From Candidatus Desantisbacteria bacterium CG1_02_38_46 (GTDB taxonomy: Bacteria > Desantisbacteria > UBA1551 > UBA1559), in contig MNUO01000122.1 of the NCBI GenBank assembly GCA_001871015.1, positions 1 to 8,273 of the forward strand: a stretch of DNA of 8,273 nt, in the 5' to 3' direction. The position numbers and the translations under genes are program-made. Of this stretch, positions 1 through 8,273 are shown piece after piece (position 1 is the stretch's first letter; the number at the start of each line of letters is the position of its first letter). The notes under the pieces are model-generated. The model was not told the DNA's origin, searched no databases, and was given only the letters and a program-made list of their open reading frames with translations.

Positions 1-126
1 CTCCACAAAGATTTCTTTCAACCTCCTGGATATTTCAGGATTCAGGATTCGATGGCGATACTTGGGAATCCAGACAAAATGATACTTGATTTCGTATACA
101 GCATGGCTTGTTCTTTGTAATCCCAT
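1..126 (-). CDS. tnpA: IS200/IS605-family Y1 transposase TnpA, N-terminal part (cut by window edge)
   Basis: This is a 42-codon open frame that starts with ATG at 126 and runs off the left edge. The translation begins MGLQRTSHAVYEIKYHFVWI and continues with PKYRHRIL. That is the typical start of Y1 (HUH) single-strand transposases of the IS200/IS605 group, where the YxxKYHxVWxxKYR segment forms the first strand of the fold. The HUH motif and catalytic tyrosine would lie beyond the edge. In this family TnpA cuts and rejoins single-stranded DNA at hairpin-marked ends. A TATAAT box ends only six bases before the ATG, so the transcript should be leaderless or nearly so. A longer open frame on the same strand (42-413) uses another reading frame and is not the gene. 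Whether the full protein is intact, or is a REP-associated (RAYT) relative, cannot be told from this fragment. Confidence 0.88.
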   Translation of the reverse strand, partial: MGLQRTSHAVYEIKYHFVWIPKYRHRILNPEISRRLKEIFVE

Positions 127-575: not shown

Positions 576-896
576 TTATATAGTCCTTATCATTTTAGGT
601 GTTTGCTTGCCATCTTCATGGATCCAGCCTTCCTCATCATGAACTTCTGCATGGCAATTTGAACATAACAGTTCACATTTTTCAGATTCTTCTACCAATT
701 CTTTCCATGTTTTATGAGAAAGATTCTTTCCCGAAATGTTGAATTTTTTAACCTTTCCTTTTTTATGGTGAAAGCCAAGAGCTGATAAAGATTTGGAATA
801 GCCACACCTTTGGCATTTCCCACCTTTTAATTTTACCAGTTCCTCTTTACGCCTGTTCCTCTTATCTCGTAAATATTCACCGTGTTTCTTTCTCAA
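576..896 (-). CDS. Small HNH endonuclease-like zinc protein
   Basis: This encodes a 106-residue basic protein. Residues 28-31 form CxxC, H43-H44 form the FHH core of the HNH beta strand, and C78/C81 with N80, H82 and H86 form CSNCHxxxH. The four cysteines should hold a structural zinc and the His/Asn residues the catalytic metal, as in HNH nucleases of phages, introns and restriction systems. The lysine/arginine-rich first 27 residues suit DNA binding. The chosen start is TTG at 896, preceded by AAGGA eight bases upstream. No in-frame ATG exists between this codon and the upstream in-frame stop near 930. The gene stands alone, and the neighbouring IS1111-type element inserted about 50 bp upstream may have separated it from its original promoter. 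The substrate is unknown, and homing or phage origin is possible. Confidence 0.72.
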   Translation of the reverse strand: MRKKHGEYLRDKRNRRKEELVKLKGGKCQRCGYSKSLSALGFHHKKGKVKKFNISGKNLSHKTWKELVEESEKCELLCSNCHAEVHDEEGWIHEDGKQTPKMIRTI

Positions 897-943: not shown

Positions 944-950
944 AATTAAG
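944..950. repeat. Left half of the insertion site with AAG core
   Basis: AATTAAG is the left side of the DNA in which the element sits. Rejoined to 2222 onward it gives AATTAAGTATTGTGTCCCC, similar to the intact repeat at 271-293. The last three bases are the core, duplicated at 2219-2221. Confidence 0.65.
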
Positions 951-954
951 ATGG

Positions 955-960
955 TATAAT
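955..960 (+). promoter_or_regulatory. TATAAT half of the circle-junction promoter
   Basis: This perfect -10 box sits four bases inside the left end. In the integrated state no good -35 box lies 16-18 bp upstream. When left and right ends are joined at the AAG core, TTGACA of the right repeat (2203-2208) is placed exactly 17 bp upstream (2209-2221 plus 951-954). Promoters formed only in the circular intermediate are known for IS110-family and IS3-family elements. Confidence 0.7.
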
Positions 961-976
961 ATAAAATGTCAACTCC
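960..976 (+). repeat. Left subterminal inverted repeat of the IS1111-type element
   Basis: TATAAAATGTCAACTCC is the perfect reverse complement of 2199-2215. It lies nine bases inside the left tip. The repeat carries TTGACA when read outward on the minus strand. Confidence 0.85.
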
Positions 977-1031
977 TTGAAAAAATTAAATAACATGATA
1001 AAATATCTACTGTAGAGAAATTTTCAAGGAG
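973..1031 (+). promoter_or_regulatory. Inverted repeat that can mask the transposase ribosome binding site
   Basis: CTCCTTGAAAA (973-983) is a perfect 11-bp reverse complement of TTTTCAAGGAG (1021-1031). The right arm contains most of the strong Shine-Dalgarno sequence AAGGAGG (1026-1032). Any RNA started upstream of 973, whether read-through or from the circle-junction promoter (start near 967), can fold and hide the site. RNA from the internal promoter cannot. Confidence 0.6.
977..1004 (+). promoter_or_regulatory. Internal promoter of the IS1111-type transposase
   Basis: TTGAAA (977-982), a 16-base spacer and TAAAAT (999-1004) each match the consensus at five of six positions. Transcripts would start near 1011, inside the left arm-to-SD interval. 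They would therefore lack the left arm of the inverted repeat that can cover the ribosome binding site. Confidence 0.5.
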
Positions 1032-1037
1032 GCAGAC

Positions 1038-2048
1038 ATGATGTATTTAGGCATTGATCATCACAAGCATTATTCACAGGTAGTGGTAATGGATAAAGAC
1101 GGTATAACCCATCTTAACAGAAAGATTAATAATGACAAAGAAAGTATCGAAACACTTAAAAGGCGTTTTAACCAGCCCATTAAGGCAGTTATAGAAGCCG
1201 GCCATAACTGGGGCAAGATGTACGACCTGTTAGAAGAATCAAATATAGCAACAGAAGTAGCCCATCCGCTGAAAGTGCGTGCCATAGCTGAAGCAAGGAT
1301 TAAAACGGATTCAATAGATGCCAAAACCCTTGCCCATTTATTAAGAACAGACCTGATTCCTTCTGTACATGTACCGTCAAAGGAAGTCAGGGAGCAGAAA
1401 AATCTGTTGCGCTATCGTTTATGGCTGGTAAGGCTTCAAACCATGACAAAGAACAGGATTTACAATGTTCTGGACCGTAACAGTATCGACACTAAAGGTC
1501 TAAATATATTTGCTAAGAAAACAAGGGAACAGATAAAGAATCTTTCGCTAAAAGATATTGACAAAAAACTACTTAAAGACCATTATGATATCTTGGAGGT
1601 AATAGAACAACACATAAAAGACACGGAATCCTGGATAGACAGTAGCCTTAAAGACAATCAGTATATAGCCATCCTGGATTCAATGCCCGGTTTTGCAAAG
1701 ATACTATCTGCATTAGCGGCCCTGGAAATAGATAATGTGGAACGTTTTGCCCATCCCGGGAAATTTGCCTCATACTGTGGTCTTATTCCTTCTACTTATT
1801 CCAGTGGCGGTAAAACTTATCACGGCAGATTAATTTGTACATGCAACTCTTATCTTAAATATGCTTTCATAGAGGCAGCATGGGCATCCATAAGAAGTTC
1901 TACCTACTGCAGAAGTTGCTATGAAAAAATCAAAGAATCTAAAGGAAGCAACGTTGCCATTGTTTCTCTGGCAAGGAGACTATCGCAAATTGCCTATAAG
2001 TGTCTTAAGGAGAACCGCAAATATGAAGAACGCCCTTATTTACAATAA
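1038..2048 (+). CDS. IS110-family (IS1111-type) DEDD transposase
   Basis: This RNA-guided recombinase of 336 residues is close to the usual family length. The N-terminal RuvC-like DEDD domain shows D7 (GIDHHK), E53 (VIEAGHNWG), D91 and D94 (KTDSIDAKTLAHLLR). A mainly helical linker follows, roughly residues 110-205. The C-terminal Transposase_20 domain spans about 210-295, with SMPGF, the CGLIPSTYSSGGK block holding the likely catalytic serine (S255 or S256), and the HGRL...N..LK..FIEAA block. The common KxGN turn of the family is CTCN here. ATG occurs twice. AAGGAGG (1026-1032) lies five bases before the first and eight before the second (1041), so 1041 may be the true start. The gene looks intact, so the element may be active. 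The RNA it would use lies directly downstream. Confidence 0.93.
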   Translation: MMYLGIDHHKHYSQVVVMDKDGITHLNRKINNDKESIETLKRRFNQPIKAVIEAGHNWGKMYDLLEESNIATEVAHPLKVRAIAEARIKTDSIDAKTLAHLLRTDLIPSVHVPSKEVREQKNLLRYRLWLVRLQTMTKNRIYNVLDRNSIDTKGLNIFAKKTREQIKNLSLKDIDKKLLKDHYDILEVIEQHIKDTESWIDSSLKDNQYIAILDSMPGFAKILSALAALEIDNVERFAHPGKFASYCGLIPSTYSSGGKTYHGRLICTCNSYLKYAFIEAAWASIRSSTYCRSCYEKIKESKGSNVAIVSLARRLSQIAYKCLKENRKYEERPYLQ

Positions 2049-2198
2049 GAATTATTCTCTGGCTGCCCTGTACAATACTTAACCTTTCAGGGTTTTTAAA
2101 TTAAGATTAGGGAGCCGGAGTTCTAATTACTATTTTGTGTCCCAAAGGGACGAAGAGAAGATTGATTGCTTTTAATTTCAAAGAGCTATTTTACATTT
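2049..2198 (+). ncRNA. IS1111-type guide RNA (bridge RNA / seekRNA) with target and donor loops
   Basis: The structure is read from the sequence. Stem 1 pairs CTCTGGCT (2057-2064) with AGCCGGAG (2113-2120), then CCCT (2066-2069) with AGGG (2109-2112), leaving G2065 bulged. Its loop holds AACC/GGTT (2081-2084/2091-2094) as an apical stem and two guides. ACAATACTTAA (2072-2082) is an 11-base complement of the rejoined empty site. AATTAAGAT (2099-2107) is identical to the left junction 944-952. Stem-loop 2 has TAAT/ATTG (2124-2127/2165-2168) at its base and GTCCC-AAA-GGGAC (2139-2151) at its tip. TACTATTTT (2128-2136) pairs with the left end 948-956 with two U-G pairs, and AGAGAAGAT (2154-2162) matches the right end 2215-2221 and runs on into the joined left end. 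A third hairpin is GCTTTT/AAGAGC (2168-2173/2181-2186). Bridge RNAs of the IS110 family have this two-loop layout. The exact RNA ends are not visible. Confidence 0.85.
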
Positions 2199-2215
2199 GG
2201 AGTTGACATTTTATA
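2199..2215 (-). repeat. Right subterminal inverted repeat of the IS1111-type element
   Basis: GGAGTTGACATTTTATA is the perfect reverse complement of 960-976. It ends only three bases before the AAG core. The uneven offset of the two repeats from the tips is usual for the IS1111 group. Confidence 0.85.
2203..2208 (+). promoter_or_regulatory. TTGACA half of the circle-junction promoter
   Basis: This consensus -35 box lies inside the right inverted repeat and points out of the element. It lacks a good -10 box in the present right flank, but pairs with TATAAT (955-960) at 17-bp spacing once the ends are joined. Confidence 0.7.
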
Positions 2216-2218
2216 GAG

Positions 2219-2241
2219 AAGTATTGTGTCCCCGGAATTCC
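2219..2241. repeat. Right half of the insertion site with AAG core
   Basis: AAGTATTGTGTCCCC followed by GGAATTCC is the right side of the split repeat. The first nine bases are complementary to the target guide at 2072-2080. GGAATTCC (2234-2241) is itself palindromic. The stop codon of the toxin-like gene lies four bases further on. Confidence 0.65.
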
Positions 2242-2244
2242 CAT

Positions 2245-2946
2245 TCATTTATAAGATTGAATCCGCTCTTTAAGAATTTCTTCACGCCAATACGCGTAGT
2301 TACCTTCATATCTCCCCGTAGTGTAATATTCAAGTTGACCAGAGAAAATTTGGAGAACATAATCTTTTAACCTTAGATCACAAGGCTCTAAGTGAGACCA
2401 AAAACATGCTTGAATTGAATCAAGTCTGCAGAAACTATTCTTAATACCACCTGCGCAAGCAGGAATGAAGAAAAATTGTGGATACTCCAGACACCTTACT
2501 TTTTCTATGAATTCAATAGGAAATTTTGTTTTCCCTTCTTTATTTTCCACGCTATAAAGAGGAGCAATAATACAAAGACGGCGATTGATTTTACCACCTC
2601 CTCGAACTTCATTTATTTTAATATCTTGGAGTGGAGGAGAAATTAGTATAACAGGTCGTTTTTTCGACTTCACAACAATAAATTCCTCATTGGTTTCTAG
2701 TTGGGGAGTATGCAAAGGCATGTTTCGATTAAAGGCGTCTGTTCCGGCTGGAACCATAATAAATTCCCTGGCACTAGTTTTAGACTCATCATAATCACTT
2801 GGTCGCCATAAAAATAATTTCTCTAAACAATATGATACAGGAACCCAGAAGAACTGCCCTCTAAGGAATGTATGTCTAAAATCTTCTCCTATTTCTTGGA
2901 AGAATTTATCTCTACCTACAATTTCGTCAAAAAAAACTCCTGACAT
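2245..2946 (-). CDS. Putative MazF/PemK-like toxin, distal gene of a toxin-antitoxin pair
   Basis: This is a protein of 233 residues. I see a diverged MazF/PemK-like barrel at about residues 85-200. RPVILISPP (97-105) resembles the second strand of MazF proteins, CIIAPLYS (125-132) the strand that follows the loop, and SFCRLDSIQACF...LEPCDLRL (171-193) the region where MazF proteins carry their conserved Ser/Asp strand and closing helix. MazF proteins are ribosome-independent or ribosome-linked mRNA interferases of about 110 residues. This one has an extra 85-residue N-terminus and a Tyr-rich tail, so the assignment is tentative. The gene starts with ATG 15 bases after the stop of the Panacea-type gene and has AGGGG six bases upstream, which gives the usual antitoxin-then-toxin order. 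Other small-barrel proteins are possible. Confidence 0.5.
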   Translation of the reverse strand: MSGVFFDEIVGRDKFFQEIGEDFRHTFLRGQFFWVPVSYCLEKLFLWRPSDYDESKTSAREFIMVPAGTDAFNRNMPLHTPQLETNEEFIVVKSKKRPVILISPPLQDIKINEVRGGGKINRRLCIIAPLYSVENKEGKTKFPIEFIEKVRCLEYPQFFFIPACAGGIKNSFCRLDSIQACFWSHLEPCDLRLKDYVLQIFSGQLEYYTTGRYEGNYAYWREEILKERIQSYK

Positions 2947-2961
2947 TGCAGCCCCTAGCTT

Positions 2962-3630
2962 TTAATATTCAGTATCTTTGTTCATCTTCTCAACTTCTTC
3001 CCAAAATAGAATATCATAATTTGGTTTGGTCTCAATACTCTTTTTTAATCTTTCATGTTCTTGCCGACATGTCTCTCGAAACTTTTTCCTAAGTTTTTCT
3101 AATTTCTCTTTGGATATTAAGCTGCTTGATAATTGAAATTCGGGAATGTTTTCTAATGAATGAATTTTTGAAAAATCAAGATCTTCTCCTCTATTTGCTT
3201 TCACCATTGGTTCGGTATAAAAATAAATATAGTCGAGCATTGGTCCAATTTTCTCATCAGCCCATCGGTCTACTAAACGCTGAATAGTAAGCCTATCGGT
3301 AGCGTCTTTAAAAACCTCACCTATATCTTTTTTTACTTTACTTTCTACAAATTCCGTATCAAAATCTAAACCCACACAATGCTTTATTGAAAAATCAAAA
3401 GACTGAGAGATGTCTTTGTATACAATTTCATATTCATGCGCCCAAGGTCCAAAATGATAAAATATCCAATTAAAACCAGTAAATGTCTCTTTGTATCTTC
3501 TAAAATATTCAACATCAATTAAATATAAATATTTAATTAATTTAGTTTTATTTAGGTAACCCTTTTTTTCGCTAACTCTATTGCTTATCGTTTTTATTAA
3601 ATCTATTAATTTATTCTTATTTTCTGACAT
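2962..3630 (-). CDS. Panacea/SocA-like (DUF4065) protein, probable antitoxin
   Basis: This is a protein of 222 residues. The N-terminal segment from about residue 20 to 75 reads LNKTKLIKYLYLIDVEYFRR followed by a TG.NWIFYHFGPWAHEYE block. These are signature blocks of the Panacea domain (DUF4065, SocA-like, also called phage-associated Gifsy domain). Proteins of this family are antitoxins that pair with many unrelated toxin domains. Residues 145-222 are strongly charged and helical and could form the toxin-specific binding part. The start ATG has GAGG (3639-3636) five bases upstream. The gene follows a 139-bp gap after the upstream operon gene, so it may have its own promoter, and is closely followed by the putative toxin. 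The family call is firm. The antitoxin role is inferred from family and position. Confidence 0.8.
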   Translation of the reverse strand: MSENKNKLIDLIKTISNRVSEKKGYLNKTKLIKYLYLIDVEYFRRYKETFTGFNWIFYHFGPWAHEYEIVYKDISQSFDFSIKHCVGLDFDTEFVESKVKKDIGEVFKDATDRLTIQRLVDRWADEKIGPMLDYIYFYTEPMVKANRGEDLDFSKIHSLENIPEFQLSSSLISKEKLEKLRKKFRETCRQEHERLKKSIETKPNYDILFWEEVEKMNKDTEY

Positions 3631-3705
3631 CTTAACCTCAAAAAGATAAAATTTGGAAAGACCAGGGATAGCAACTATTTATTTGTTTCATTTCCTGCCG
3701 GCAAA

Positions 3706-3733
3706 AATAGAAACTATGCCTTTTATTTCTATT
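3706..3733 (-). terminator. AT-rich inverted repeat in the 139-bp gap, terminator or operator
   Basis: AATAGAAA (3706-3713) and TTTCTATT (3726-3733) form 8-bp arms around a 12-base loop. On the minus strand the second arm is followed by TTT, giving TTTCTATTTTT. The repeat lies about 37 bases after the stop of the unknown gene and about 75 bases before the Panacea gene. It could therefore be a weak terminator of the restriction operon or an operator of the toxin-antitoxin pair. The rest of the gap (3631-3769) shows no clear promoter. Confidence 0.35.
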
Positions 3734-3769
3734 AGGAGTCTTTACTATAGAAAGGTGTAGTTCTAAATC

Positions 3770-4579
3770 TTATGTTGCACCTATAAGACAATACTCTGCC
3801 AGTTTTGCGTCCAATCTCCAAAAGAAACTGCGTTTTTTACTTATTAGGCTACCAGGAACCAGACCATGAAACATATACCAGTTTGCAATCCTTTGTGATA
3901 ATTTGTTAAGTATTTTTCTTTTTGTATCATAAATTTGTTGTGCTGCAAAAGCAAGATATAGCCGGTATTCCATCATTTTTTTCATTTTTGGTTTTTCACT
4001 GTATTCTTTAAATAGCCATCCTTCGCTCTTCAATTTTTCTTGGTTTTGTGATTTTTTCCTGATAAGAGGAATAACTTCTTTTGAAACCATAGCCGTATCA
4101 TATACAGGAATTATACTTGGAAAGAAATGATGAAGTACTTTTGAACCAAGCACTGGTTCAATTCTCATTGTATGTCTTACTTTAGAAATATTTTTTACAC
4201 TTTCCTCAATCGTTAAGAAAACTTTTTTATACTGTTTTTGACTCATACTTCCAAGATCCCTCGGTGATTTGACATTATATTTATTGAATACATCAGTTAG
4301 ATGGGTTACTTCATCTGCAACTATTTGCTCAAACTTCTTCCTATTCGTAATTGTTATGTTCCGTCTTGCACTCCATTCACCAGTTAAATGCCATACAATC
4401 ACGGAGCATTTATCAATTGCTCTATCATATGCCCAAGCCCACAAAGAGGAATCCTCTTGGTTTTTAGAAGCAGTTTCGTGAATAGTGAAAAAGGGTGCCA
4501 ATGCTTGAGCGTGACCACTACTATCCCATTTATTTTTTATCCAACCTTTAAAATTCTTATAAGTTATAAATGTTGACAT
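3770..4579 (-). CDS. Uncharacterised protein co-encoded with the type III-like restriction genes
   Basis: This is a protein of 269 residues if it starts at MSTFITYK (ATG at 4579), 17 bases after the res stop, with GGGA about seven bases upstream. An earlier in-frame ATG at 4651 would overlap the end of res by 56 bases and adds 24 residues without a clear binding site, so I prefer the shorter form. I do not recognise a named family. The protein looks mostly helical and basic. The central block MRIEPVLGSKVLHHFFPSII, followed by PVYDTAM, stands out. From memory, similar GSK-x-LHxxxP...PxxD blocks occur in several uncharacterised proteins near defence genes. No signal peptide or membrane segment is visible. 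Same strand and tight spacing place it in the mod-res operon, so it may be an accessory subunit or an effector of the restriction system. Confidence 0.75.
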   Translation of the reverse strand: MSTFITYKNFKGWIKNKWDSSGHAQALAPFFTIHETASKNQEDSSLWAWAYDRAIDKCSVIVWHLTGEWSARRNITITNRKKFEQIVADEVTHLTDVFNKYNVKSPRDLGSMSQKQYKKVFLTIEESVKNISKVRHTMRIEPVLGSKVLHHFFPSIIPVYDTAMVSKEVIPLIRKKSQNQEKLKSEGWLFKEYSEKPKMKKMMEYRLYLAFAAQQIYDTKRKILNKLSQRIANWYMFHGLVPGSLISKKRSFFWRLDAKLAEYCLIGAT

Positions 4580-4585
4580 ATCGTT

Positions 4586-4589
4586 TCCC
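4586..4589 (-). promoter_or_regulatory. Ribosome binding site that favours the 4579 start
   Basis: On the minus strand TGGGAAACGAT precedes the ATG at 4579, giving GGGA about six to seven bases upstream. I see no comparable site before the alternative ATG at 4651. Confidence 0.4.
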
Positions 4590-4595
4590 AAATAT

Positions 4596-7403
4596 CTACT
4601 CCAAAAGTGATGCAGGTTTAGGTTTCTCCAATTTTTTAAGGAATCCTGCAAAAGAATCTGCCGGGGCTTTAGTTAGATTGTCTGTTAATGATATATAATC
4701 GGTATATTTCACCTTTAAATAAAGCCACTTAGTTTTTACTAACTCAGATACATTCTTACACCAGTCTATTGCCGCAGCATCTTTGAATGGCACATCTTCT
4801 TTTTCCCACCCTTTCGTTTCAATCAACCACATTAGTAAGCCATCATTTAGTTTTTGCTCAGCGACAAAGTCCGGATAGTAAAAGGCTATGGCATTTTTAT
4901 GATTTAGGTATTCAATTGAAAATTTAGTATAAGTTTCTGCCAATTTAGCGAATTTGCCAATATCTTCAGTTTGATTTAAAAATTGGGCAAAATGCTTTTC
5001 AAAGTCATTAAAACAGGGCGTGATATTGAAAACAGTTCTCTCAAGTTCAACCCAGTCTCTTCGCCAGTAGAAACCATCCAGTTCAAGTAAATGCAAAGAT
5101 TCAGATTTTAATTTTGGAACAGTTCTGTTTATGCTTTTCTCCCCGATTTTCTTTGCCAATATAGTAATAATTTCAATTGCATTTCGAGAATCGAGAAGAA
5201 AACGTCTAATATTCTCCTGTTCAATATTTACTTTTTGACCAAAGAATATTTCCTGAATGTATTTTCTTACAAGAGGATAGACTACAGCAAATTGCCCTTC
5301 AATTCTTACTTCTTTACAGACACGATTTGTAATATGAACTAAAATTTCGTTTGTTCCAGGCAATCCGGTATCAATTGTTATCTGTTTCTGACCCATTGTC
5401 TTCTGGGTTATAGTCTCTATTAAATCAACCTTGGTTGTTTTGCTATCAGTCAGTGATATACCTTTAGGATTAGGCTTTAAGTCTTTAAGTATTGAATCAT
5501 CAAGAATCTGAAATTCACGACTATATGTAGAAGTAAGAATCGGCATTTCTATATCATATTTATTTTTTATTTTCATTGGATAGATATGAACACCAAGGGG
5601 TGGCGGTTCTTTTGTTACCCCAACACCTACACCCTCAACTTCAAGTTCCTTTACAAATTCTTCAAATCTTTGAGTTCCAATTATCTCAACAATCTGAATA
5701 TAGTCTGGTCCCACATTTTTCATAAGCCGCAAACCGCGCCCAACTGCTTGCTCCGGTAAAATATTAGCTTTTGCAGTAAATGGCCTAAGCCCTAAGATAA
5801 TAGAGACATTACGCACATCCCAGCCTTCGCGCAACATTAAAACACTTATTATTGCCTTTATTCTATTAGTTGGCAGGTCAATTAAGCGAGCTGATTCTCT
5901 AGCCTTATCCAGGTCTTTCTTTGTTATCTCGCCGGTTTTATCAGTATGGATTAGAAGAAGTTGATTTTCACCTTTGAATTCCGCCATCTTCTTCATTTCA
6001 TCATATATATCGTCTGCATCATTTGTATTTTCTGCCATAATAAAAAGCACAGGTCTTGAACCTACTTTTTTGTAGGCTTCATAATGTTCCTTCCAACGGG
6101 AAATCGCAATATTAATCCACTCTCCATATGCCACGCTTGCTCGGGAATATTTCTCTGGATCAGCCTTTTCTGTTTGATGAACAATTAAGGGTGCCTTTAT
6201 AATCCTATCTTCTATTGCCTGAGCCAATGGATAATCACATACAATCCAAGGGAAAAAGGTTCCATTCTGATCTTTGGGTGTAGCAGAAAAATCTAACTGT
6301 AAAAATAATTTATTTCGAAATTTTTCTTTTAGATTCTTTTGAAGTTCCAGAATGACCTTATACCACTCTAAATCTGTATCGTGAACGTGATGCGCTTCAT
6401 CATTAATAATAAGCAGTTCCTTGTGTTTTTTAATCCTATCCAGCATATCTTCTTCCCATGAACCAGTTGCATCTTTTGGTTTTGGACCTAATAATCTATT
6501 TACTGGGTCGTCGTCCTTTCTTTCGTTTCTCCCTTCATACAGTTGATGGATGTTGGTAAGATAAAGTGTACCTTCGGTGGAAGTTTTCCTTGACTCACCA
6601 CGCATGATAAAAGTCATTTGCCAATCGTGCTTCCATTCTTTGGGAATTAAATCCCATTCTTTAAAAATATTACCACTTTCAAAATCTTCTCTTAGTCTTT
6701 CAAATACAATTACATTTGGTGCGATTATTAAAAATGTTTTACTCAAAGATGAATCTCTTTCAAGTTTTTTGTGAAAATAAGACCAGGCAACTGCCATTGC
6801 CATAACAAGTGTTTTGCCAGAGCCTGTAGCCATTTTTACTGCATATCGGCAATGGTCAGACTGGGGAAGTTCCTGATGTGCAATGAGTCCTGTTTCTGGA
6901 ACGCGGCGGATTAAAATTCGTTCATTGCGCACATTTTCTTCAATATCTTTTCTCTTAGTAAATAAGTCTTCCCTGTATGCTTCCGGATCCATATACTTAA
7001 AAATCAAATCTGCTGCATCCCTGAGTTTCTTTATCTCATACAGATAAATTATTGTTTCTATTGCTTCTCTTTGACAAAAATAATATTCAAATTCAATATC
7101 GTTTTCAAATGTATGCATCTCATCAAACCACCATCCTAATAACCGTAAGGATGTAGCAGAAATTCCTCCTGGTATTTTATAGCCACTGGACCGCCACCCA
7201 TCAACTTCCTGCCTAATCTGATTAACAAGCAATGTTTTGCTAGGTCGGCGATAATTTTCAATAAGATAACCGCCCTTGCCATCTTTTATCAAATGTTGAA
7301 TTGGTGGAGAATAAGCATCTCTATCAGGAACTTCAGGCAGTTTCTGTTCTAATGTAATAATCGGCTTAGCCTTGGATTCTTTTGCTTCTTTTTTTCTTTT
7401 CAT
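4596..7403 (-). CDS. res: Type III-like restriction enzyme Res subunit (SF2 helicase plus PD-(D/E)XK nuclease)
   Basis: This protein of 935 residues is full length for the family. A Q-motif-like FEYYFCQREA lies near residue 105. Walker A MATGSGKT is at 191-198, DEAH at 335-338, DFSATP at 371-376, REGWDV at 525-530 and the arginine-finger block EQAVGRGLR at 551-559. A C-terminal nuclease follows, with D845 (YYPDF) and E862-T-K864 (IETKG) as the PD-(D/E)XK catalytic triad. ATP-driven movement along DNA and cleavage of unmethylated target sites is the known role of such subunits. The ATG at 7403 overlaps the methylase stop by one base (TGATG), with GGAGG (7418-7414) ten bases upstream, so the two are translationally coupled. 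All helicase and nuclease residues are present, so the enzyme looks functional. Whether the system is classical type III or a related two-gene type cannot be decided without the methylase N-terminus. Confidence 0.92.
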   Translation of the reverse strand: MKRKKEAKESKAKPIITLEQKLPEVPDRDAYSPPIQHLIKDGKGGYLIENYRRPSKTLLVNQIRQEVDGWRSSGYKIPGGISATSLRLLGWWFDEMHTFENDIEFEYYFCQREAIETIIYLYEIKKLRDAADLIFKYMDPEAYREDLFTKRKDIEENVRNERILIRRVPETGLIAHQELPQSDHCRYAVKMATGSGKTLVMAMAVAWSYFHKKLERDSSLSKTFLIIAPNVIVFERLREDFESGNIFKEWDLIPKEWKHDWQMTFIMRGESRKTSTEGTLYLTNIHQLYEGRNERKDDDPVNRLLGPKPKDATGSWEEDMLDRIKKHKELLIINDEAHHVHDTDLEWYKVILELQKNLKEKFRNKLFLQLDFSATPKDQNGTFFPWIVCDYPLAQAIEDRIIKAPLIVHQTEKADPEKYSRASVAYGEWINIAISRWKEHYEAYKKVGSRPVLFIMAENTNDADDIYDEMKKMAEFKGENQLLLIHTDKTGEITKKDLDKARESARLIDLPTNRIKAIISVLMLREGWDVRNVSIILGLRPFTAKANILPEQAVGRGLRLMKNVGPDYIQIVEIIGTQRFEEFVKELEVEGVGVGVTKEPPPLGVHIYPMKIKNKYDIEMPILTSTYSREFQILDDSILKDLKPNPKGISLTDSKTTKVDLIETITQKTMGQKQITIDTGLPGTNEILVHITNRVCKEVRIEGQFAVVYPLVRKYIQEIFFGQKVNIEQENIRRFLLDSRNAIEIITILAKKIGEKSINRTVPKLKSESLHLLELDGFYWRRDWVELERTVFNITPCFNDFEKHFAQFLNQTEDIGKFAKLAETYTKFSIEYLNHKNAIAFYYPDFVAEQKLNDGLLMWLIETKGWEKEDVPFKDAAAIDWCKNVSELVKTKWLYLKVKYTDYISLTDNLTKAPADSFAGFLKKLEKPKPASLLE

Positions 7404-8273
7404 CAGGATTTAACCTCCAAAATTCTTGTTGTATCATTTCCAAAAATATCAATTACTTTTATCATAATAAGGTGCTTACCTTTACTTTCATATTTATGTC
7501 CATCTGATTTTAATTCAAGATTACGCTCTTTGCGTGTGCGGTAGGACTGCCACATATTATGAAAAGTATCCTGATTCCAGTTCCAGTCCACAGCCCAGTA
7601 GTCAATATAATCAGACCATTTCTTTATTTTTTCTCTGACTTCCTGTGGAATTAAATCAAGGTTTGGTATTGCAAAATCCTGTAACTCTACTACAAACTCA
7701 TCATATTTATCCTTCTTTGCTTCTGCCTCTAAATAAGCAAGCTCATAAAAAGTAACATCTCCTTTTTCTACTGCCCTTGGGTCCATCACGTCTCTTGGAA
7801 TGCTGAATAAACGCAAATGGATACCACTTGATTTAGACTCTTTTTCCACCACATCATGTAATCCCATTTCCCACTCCCACCCTAAAATATCAAGGGAATT
7901 CTGCCCAGCCTTTTTTGTTTCAGCAATGGCTTCCTGAATTTCAGATAAAGTAACCGGTGCATCAACTGCTCCTACATGGACTAAACACTTTCCCCTTTTC
8001 CCGTGGATATGGAGCATACCAGAAATAGGCTCGGCATTATATAATTTAAGAATGAATTGGATATATTCGTAAATAGGCACTTGCTCGTCACTGCGTTTTG
8101 CAAAAGTTACTCCCTGCCAGTATTGCCTTTCATATTTTCCAAGGTTCTGAACAACAAAAGGTCTACAATCTTCAATATCTAATAATCGTTTTCTTGCTGT
8201 ATGAATAGCAAAACGACCCAGGTCTGTCATAAGCCAACGACGACCTAATTTCTCAGCTACTGCCCCAGTTGTG
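7403..8273 (-). CDS. mod: DNA methyltransferase (Mod) of the type III-like system, C-terminal part (cut by window edge)
   Basis: The frame stays open to the right edge. The first visible residues are TTGAVAEKLGRRWLMTDLGR, the segment just after motif I (FxGSG) in beta-class N6-adenine or N4-cytosine methylases. The Met at 8230 is therefore internal and not the start. In this class the catalytic DPPY motif lies N-terminal to motif I, so it should be outside the window. The remaining 260 or so residues form a conserved C-terminal extension, with NLGKYERQYW, KCLVHVGAVDAPV, LGWEWEMGLHD and IPRDVMDPRAVEKGD, followed by a Trp-rich stretch. This extension is typical of methylases paired with such Res subunits and probably binds Res or DNA. 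The protein ends in EVKS, and its TGA shares one base with the res ATG. Confidence 0.88.
   Translation of the reverse strand, partial: TTGAVAEKLGRRWLMTDLGRFAIHTARKRLLDIEDCRPFVVQNLGKYERQYWQGVTFAKRSDEQVPIYEYIQFILKLYNAEPISGMLHIHGKRGKCLVHVGAVDAPVTLSEIQEAIAETKKAGQNSLDILGWEWEMGLHDVVEKESKSSGIHLRLFSIPRDVMDPRAVEKGDVTFYELAYLEAEAKKDKYDEFVVELQDFAIPNLDLIPQEVREKIKKWSDYIDYWAVDWNWNQDTFHNMWQSYRTRKERNLELKSDGHKYESKGKHLIMIKVIDIFGNDTTRILEVKS
7414..7418 (-). promoter_or_regulatory. Ribosome binding site of res inside the end of mod
   Basis: GGAGG on the minus strand lies ten bases before the res ATG and within the last codons of mod. Together with the TGATG overlap it supports coupled translation of methylase and restriction subunit. 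Confidence 0.6.

What the first reader, a model, noticed from the sequence alone, without database searches (positions are those of the whole stretch)
2049..2198. All four guides of an IS1111-type bridge RNA can be read against its own insertion site
In the loop of the first 12-bp stem, ACAATACTTAA (2072-2082) is complementary to TTAAGTATTGT, the empty site rebuilt from 946-950 plus 2222-2227. AATTAAG (2099-2105) is identical to the left target 944-950. In the second stem-loop, TACTATTTT (2128-2136) pairs with the left end 948-956, using two U-G pairs, and AGAGAAG (2154-2160) equals the right end 2215-2221. Every guide runs through the same AAG core (CT/CTT on the other strand). The two-loop, four-guide design is established for IS110-family RNAs. 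The specific assignment here is my reading of this sequence.
Basis: partly seen in the sequence, partly recalled or inferred. Interest (0 to 1): 0.85.

Follow-up and report, generated by a model that had tools for sequence, protein, structure and literature searches.

The report
Jumping gene with self-targeting guide RNA
This is a small mobile DNA element whose own short RNA spells out both the place where it has landed and its own two ends; the reading was checked against dozens of related elements and it holds, so it is a well-documented new example of a recently discovered kind of RNA-guided jumping gene rather than a new kind.

Summary
Window 951-2221 is a single-copy, intact IS110-family element of IS1111-type layout: DEDD transposase at 1038-2048, perfect 17-bp subterminal inverted repeats, guide RNA downstream of the gene. 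A covariance model built only from relatives finds the RNA at 2051-2169 (E 2.7e-17). Its 12-bp first stem has compensatory changes at 11 of 12 pairs.

In about 20 divergent relatives the bases at the guide positions follow each element's own site. The left target, right target and right donor guides are each supported at P<=5e-5. The left donor guide is weaker.

Natural empty sites of two rhizobial relatives show clean insertion with one shared AG core.

Corrections: the left target match is 9 nt (944-952), not 7. The donor-guide matches are not significant from the window alone. The minimal core is AG. The extensions beyond the repeats are longer than the published 7 and 3 bp.

Verdict: a new member of a known kind, little surprise in itself. 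The more unusual lead is in its relatives: rhizobial and some other branches insert into Shine-Dalgarno sequences just before start codons.

The parts
951..2221 (+). the whole element, one core copy counted at the right end (equivalently 948-2218)
   Evidence: inverted repeats, guide matches, junction promoter spacing, empty sites of relatives
944..950 (+). left target AATTAAG, including core AAG 948-950; guide match continues to 952
2219..2227 (+). core AAG plus right target TATTGT
960..976 (+). left subterminal inverted repeat TATAAAATGTCAACTCC
   Evidence: 17/17 complementary to 2199-2215
2199..2215 (+). right subterminal inverted repeat GGAGTTGACATTTTATA
1038..2048 (+). DEDD transposase, 336 aa
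   Evidence: PF01548 E 3.7e-24 and PF02371 E 1.7e-20; NCBIfam NF033542 IS110 family RNA-guided transposase E 1.3e-68; related to solved ISCro4 and IS621 transposases
2051..2169 (+). guide (bridge/seek) RNA core
   Evidence: covariance model of relatives, 68 bits, E 2.7e-17
2057..2069 (+). 5' arm of stem 1 (bulged G at 2065)
   Evidence: pairs with 2109-2120; 93% of cells paired, 11 of 12 pairs with double changes in 21 sequences
2109..2120 (+). 3' arm of stem 1
2072..2082 (+). right target guide; [quoted passage not shown]
   Evidence: follows site in 22 relatives
2099..2107 (+). left target guide AATTAAGAT, same as top strand 944-952, so pairs with the bottom strand
2128..2136 (+). left donor guide, pairs with 948-956 using two G-U pairs
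   Evidence: weak alone; follows left end in relatives
2139..2151 (+). donor hairpin GTCCC-AAA-GGGAC
2154..2160 (+). right donor guide AGAGAAG, same as right end 2215-2221
   Evidence: follows right end in 22 relatives
2203..2208 (+). -35 box TTGACA, used only when the ends are joined in the circle
   Evidence: 17-bp spacer to 955-960 across the junction
955..960 (+). -10 box TATAAT completing the circle-junction promoter

Best explanation
An IS110-family insertion sequence with IS1111-type organisation whose downstream non-coding region makes a two-loop guide RNA. [quoted passage not shown] Loop 2 reads the joined element ends of the circular intermediate in the same polarity: its 5' guide (2128-2136) pairs with the left end and its 3' guide (2154-2160) with the right end. 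The transposase uses the RNA to bring circle and target together and exchanges strands at the shared AAG/AG core, so insertion leaves no duplication. Joining the ends also builds a TTGACA-17-TATAAT promoter that would transcribe transposase and RNA. Shown here: RNA homology, stem covariation, guide-site covariation, clean insertion in relatives, promoter geometry. Inferred: expression, processing, RNA-protein binding, recombination chemistry.
For: RNA model without the window hits 2051-2169, E 2.7e-17. Stem 1 compensatory changes at 11 of 12 pairs. Guide-site tests as mean longest match, own site against other sites: left target 6.75 vs 3.43 (20 elements, P<=5e-5); right target 6.59 vs 3.42 (22, P<=5e-5) and 5.48 vs 3.93 in 33 rhizobial elements (P<=5e-5); right donor 6.73 vs 4.27 (22, P<=5e-5); left donor 4.33 vs 3.40 (21, P 5e-5 exact, 0.016 with wobble). 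Window vs L036 (53% identical transposase): donor guides and ends almost unchanged, target guides and sites both changed (AATTAAG to GTATCAG; TATTGT to AACCGTCC). Natural empty sites of two rhizobial copies show exactly the one-core join, apart from strain point differences. Only that join gives a 17-bp promoter spacer in the window; the 7/3 join gives 12.
Against: Single copy, so target specificity of this very element rests on one site. No empty site for the window itself was found. The left donor guide is weak. Some relatives (L039, L040, L058, L075) show poor right-target matches. The extensions outside the repeats (9 and 6 bp) are longer than the 7 and 3 bp reported for IS1111 elements. 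No expression data.
Confidence: 0.94

Rival explanations
1. The guide matches are chance in an AT-rich sequence and the folded region is only a 3' untranslated structure.
For: Donor-guide matches alone occur in 8-10% of shuffles.
Against: Target matches occur together in 0 of 3000 shuffles; guide positions follow the sites in unrelated relatives; the RNA is homologous to theirs.
Confidence: 0.02
2. Same element, but the junction is at the 7/3 position of published IS1111 elements (953 and 2218), so the AAG repeat is incidental.
For: 7 bp left and 3 bp right are the reported IS1111 extensions (PMC11187229).
Against: It gives a 12-bp promoter spacer instead of 17; empty sites of two rhizobial relatives fit one shared core and not the 7/3 join counted from the TGAAA border; target guide pairing is continuous only over the AAG join.
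Confidence: 0.03
3. A dead relic: guides still match because it has not decayed, but it can no longer move.
For: One copy in an 88% complete assembly.
Against: Intact reading frame, perfect 17-bp repeats, all four guides intact, ideal junction promoter.
Confidence: 0.15

Closest known systems
IS1111-group insertion sequences with seekRNA (ISEc11, ISKpn4, ISPa11; Siddiquee et al. 2024, PMC11187229)
   Same: transposase length and motifs, subterminal inverted repeats, RNA downstream of the gene, top-strand complement before bottom-strand match, junction promoter in the circle
   Different: extensions outside the repeats are 9 and 6 bp rather than 7 and 3; 17-bp repeat against the usual 11-13; own target site; no experiment
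IS621 / IS110 bridge RNA (Durrant et al. 2024, PMC11208160)
   Same: two loops with four guides, target and donor each read on both strands, all guides including the core
   Different: RNA lies in the right end, guide order is reversed, long inverted repeats, core AG/AAG rather than CT; transposase only about 25% identical to IS621
IS110-family element of Elusimicrobia UBA4817 (L036)
   Same: 53% identical transposase, same or nearly same ends and donor guides, same RNA fold
   Different: different target guides matching a different site

Membership tests
IS110 family | DEDD RuvC-like N-terminal domain and Transposase_20 C-terminal domain with G--P----S(T)G motif | tested here: met
   PF01548, PF02371; NF033542; GLIPSTYSSG at residues 248-257
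IS110 family | non-coding RNA with loops complementary to target and to element ends | tested here: met
IS1111 group | subterminal inverted repeats | tested here: met
   17 of 17 bp
IS1111 group | long non-coding region downstream of the transposase gene | tested here: met
   2049-2198, RNA model hit 2051-2169
IS1111 group | top-strand complement lies 5' of the bottom-strand match in the RNA | tested here: met
   2072-2082 before 2099-2107
IS1111 group | extensions of 7 bp left and 3 bp right beyond the repeats (descriptive, not used to assign the group) | tested here: not met
   9 and 6 bp with the one-core junction
IS1111 group | transposase clusters with IS1111 rather than IS110 transposases | not tested
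   no reference tree made; length 336 aa is in the reported 330-350 range
IS1111 group | RNA bound by transposase and needed for transposition | not testable with these tools
   needs experiment

The most novel reading that the evidence does not exclude
The window's element is one branch of a lineage in which the donor half of the guide RNA is conserved while the target half is repeatedly rewritten. Other branches (rhizobia, Bdellovibrionia, Omnitrophota, Elusimicrobia) aim at translation starts: the left guide reads AAGGAG, the right guide reads the spacer and start codon and varies copy by copy, and the element's right end (TTGGAG) resupplies a Shine-Dalgarno sequence so that the downstream gene would stay translatable. 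Whether this has been reported could not be settled with the papers held.
Probability: 0.6. Interest if true: 0.55.

Novelty: new member of a known kind. Interest (0 to 1): 0.38.

Why it matters
It shows that all four guides of a bridge-type RNA can be read from a single genomic window and then confirmed on relatives. It adds a compact, AT-rich element with an AG/AAG core, from a genome whose phylum has only two genomes in the searched set, to the pool of programmable recombinases. The relatives give a ready data set for the guide code, including natural retargeting and a translation-start-targeting branch.

Tried and rejected
Single-protein scans of genome and viral contigs found no relatives. 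A viral scan with the alignment found none. DNA-level search of plasmids found none. The idea that the target is a dispersed repeat (TGTGTCCCC occurs twice in the window) was rejected: in the own genome the pattern is found 8 times with up to 2 mismatches, against 9 for the reversed control pattern. Rfam has no matching family above its gathering score. The 7/3 junction was tested and not favoured. L003 was not usable for the right end because the record is masked there. A wide search region made the left donor guide signal weaker (P 1.5e-3); a narrower register gave P 5e-5 for exact matches but 0.016 with wobble. A structure prediction was not run because sequence matches to solved ISCro4 and IS621 structures were enough.

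Full report
Observation. The transposase gene is 1038-2048, with DEDD_Tnp_IS110 and Transposase_20 domains, the NCBIfam model for IS110-family RNA-guided transposases, and sequence similarity to the solved ISCro4 and IS621 transposases. The inverted repeats 960-976 and 2199-2215 are identical over 17 bp. The element occurs once in the 1.73-Mb assembly.

Structure. An alignment of 21 diverse relatives supports the first stem (2057-2069 with 2109-2120): 93% of cells paired, 11 of 12 pairs with changes on both sides, covariation score 0.56 against 0.28 in shuffles and at most 0.25 when slid. A covariance model built from 17 relatives without the window finds 2051-2169 with 68 bits, E 2.7e-17, and nothing else in the window.

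Relatives. A scan with a five-member protein alignment gave 80 loci, the nearest L036 (53%) and L037 (50%), then many at 40-45%, among them a large rhizobial group also found on plasmids. Ends and guide regions were read out for about 60 of them.

Do the guides follow the sites? For each element I compared its own guide with its own site and with the sites of all others, with 20,000 permutations. The left target guide, right target guide and right donor guide all follow (P<=5e-5 each). The left donor guide follows weakly (P 5e-5 exact, 0.016 with wobble). The comparison of the window with L036 is instructive: right donor guide AGAGAAGATTGA and left donor guide ACTATTTTG are the same in both, and so nearly are the ends GAT(A/G)GTATAA and GAGAAG, while the target guides differ and each matches its own site. 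Permutations treat elements as independent, so related elements inflate significance somewhat; the non-rhizobial set spans many phyla and the effect is large.

Chance in the window alone. The two target guides are significant and the two donor guides are not.

Junction. Two rhizobial insertions have natural empty sites in other strains. L125 and L126 (for L033) and L124 and L127 (for L035) equal the two flanks joined with a single GGAG and no extra bases, apart from one to four strain point differences in the 64 bases shown. Transferred to the window this is the AAG join. It brings TTGACA (2203-2208) and TATAAT (955-960) to a spacing of 17, against 12 for the published 7/3 convention counted from this repeat. 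In L036, L037 and L038 the same spacing of 17 can be counted by hand from the sequences. This agrees with the circle-junction promoter described for IS1111 elements (PMC11187229).

Mechanism. Following PMC11208160 and PMC11187229, the RNA would hold the circle junction in loop 2 and the target in loop 1, each read on both strands through the core, and the transposase would exchange strands at the core. Shown here: sequence, structure, covariation, empty sites of relatives. Inferred: everything biochemical.

Classification. Layout, guide order and repeats are those of the IS1111 type. The published extension lengths are not met, and no tree with reference transposases was made. I file it as an IS110-family element of IS1111-type organisation.

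Beyond the window. Of 39 distinct sites of the Shine-Dalgarno type, 33 have a start codon 1-11 nt after the GGAG that opens at least 80 codons, against 10% at random positions. The right target guide in this group covers spacer and start codon and varies between near-identical copies. Copies sharing one guide (GGCAGTC) sit at several sites of different match quality, which fits guides choosing sites rather than guides adapting afterwards. Searches of the held papers for this targeting found nothing direct, which does not establish novelty.

Noticed in passing
L033, L035, L041-L109 (rhizobial), L039, L040, L075, L076, L094: Related elements sit inside Shine-Dalgarno sequences a few bases before a start codon; the right end ends in TTGGAG in most, so the downstream gene keeps a Shine-Dalgarno sequence (33 of 39 sites open a frame of 80 codons or more, 10% expected).
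   Followed up: partly
L033, L063, L066, L067, L070, L096: Near-identical rhizobial copies share the right target guide GGCAGTC but sit at sites with different numbers of mismatches; other close copies have different guides that match their own sites.
   Followed up: partly
window 1-126 (-): Start of an IS200-like transposase (MGLQRTSHAVYEIKYHFVWIPKYRHRILNPEISRRLKEIFVE, named by eye) cut by the contig end, followed by hairpins around 160-221.
   Followed up: no
window 2245-8230 (-): A type III restriction-modification locus: methyltransferase C-terminal part at 7403-8230 (PADLOC MTase_III), helicase/nuclease at 4596-7403, and further unnamed genes, one with weak SocA/Panacea similarity; the element sits at its downstream edge.
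   Followed up: partly
window 576-896 (-): Small HNH endonuclease-like ORF about 50 bp from the insertion; the element lies in the gap between it and the gene ending at 2245 and breaks neither.
   Followed up: partly
L032, L003 transposases: The residue aligned with the last D of the window's presumed DEDD set (D94) is S in these two elements.
   Followed up: no
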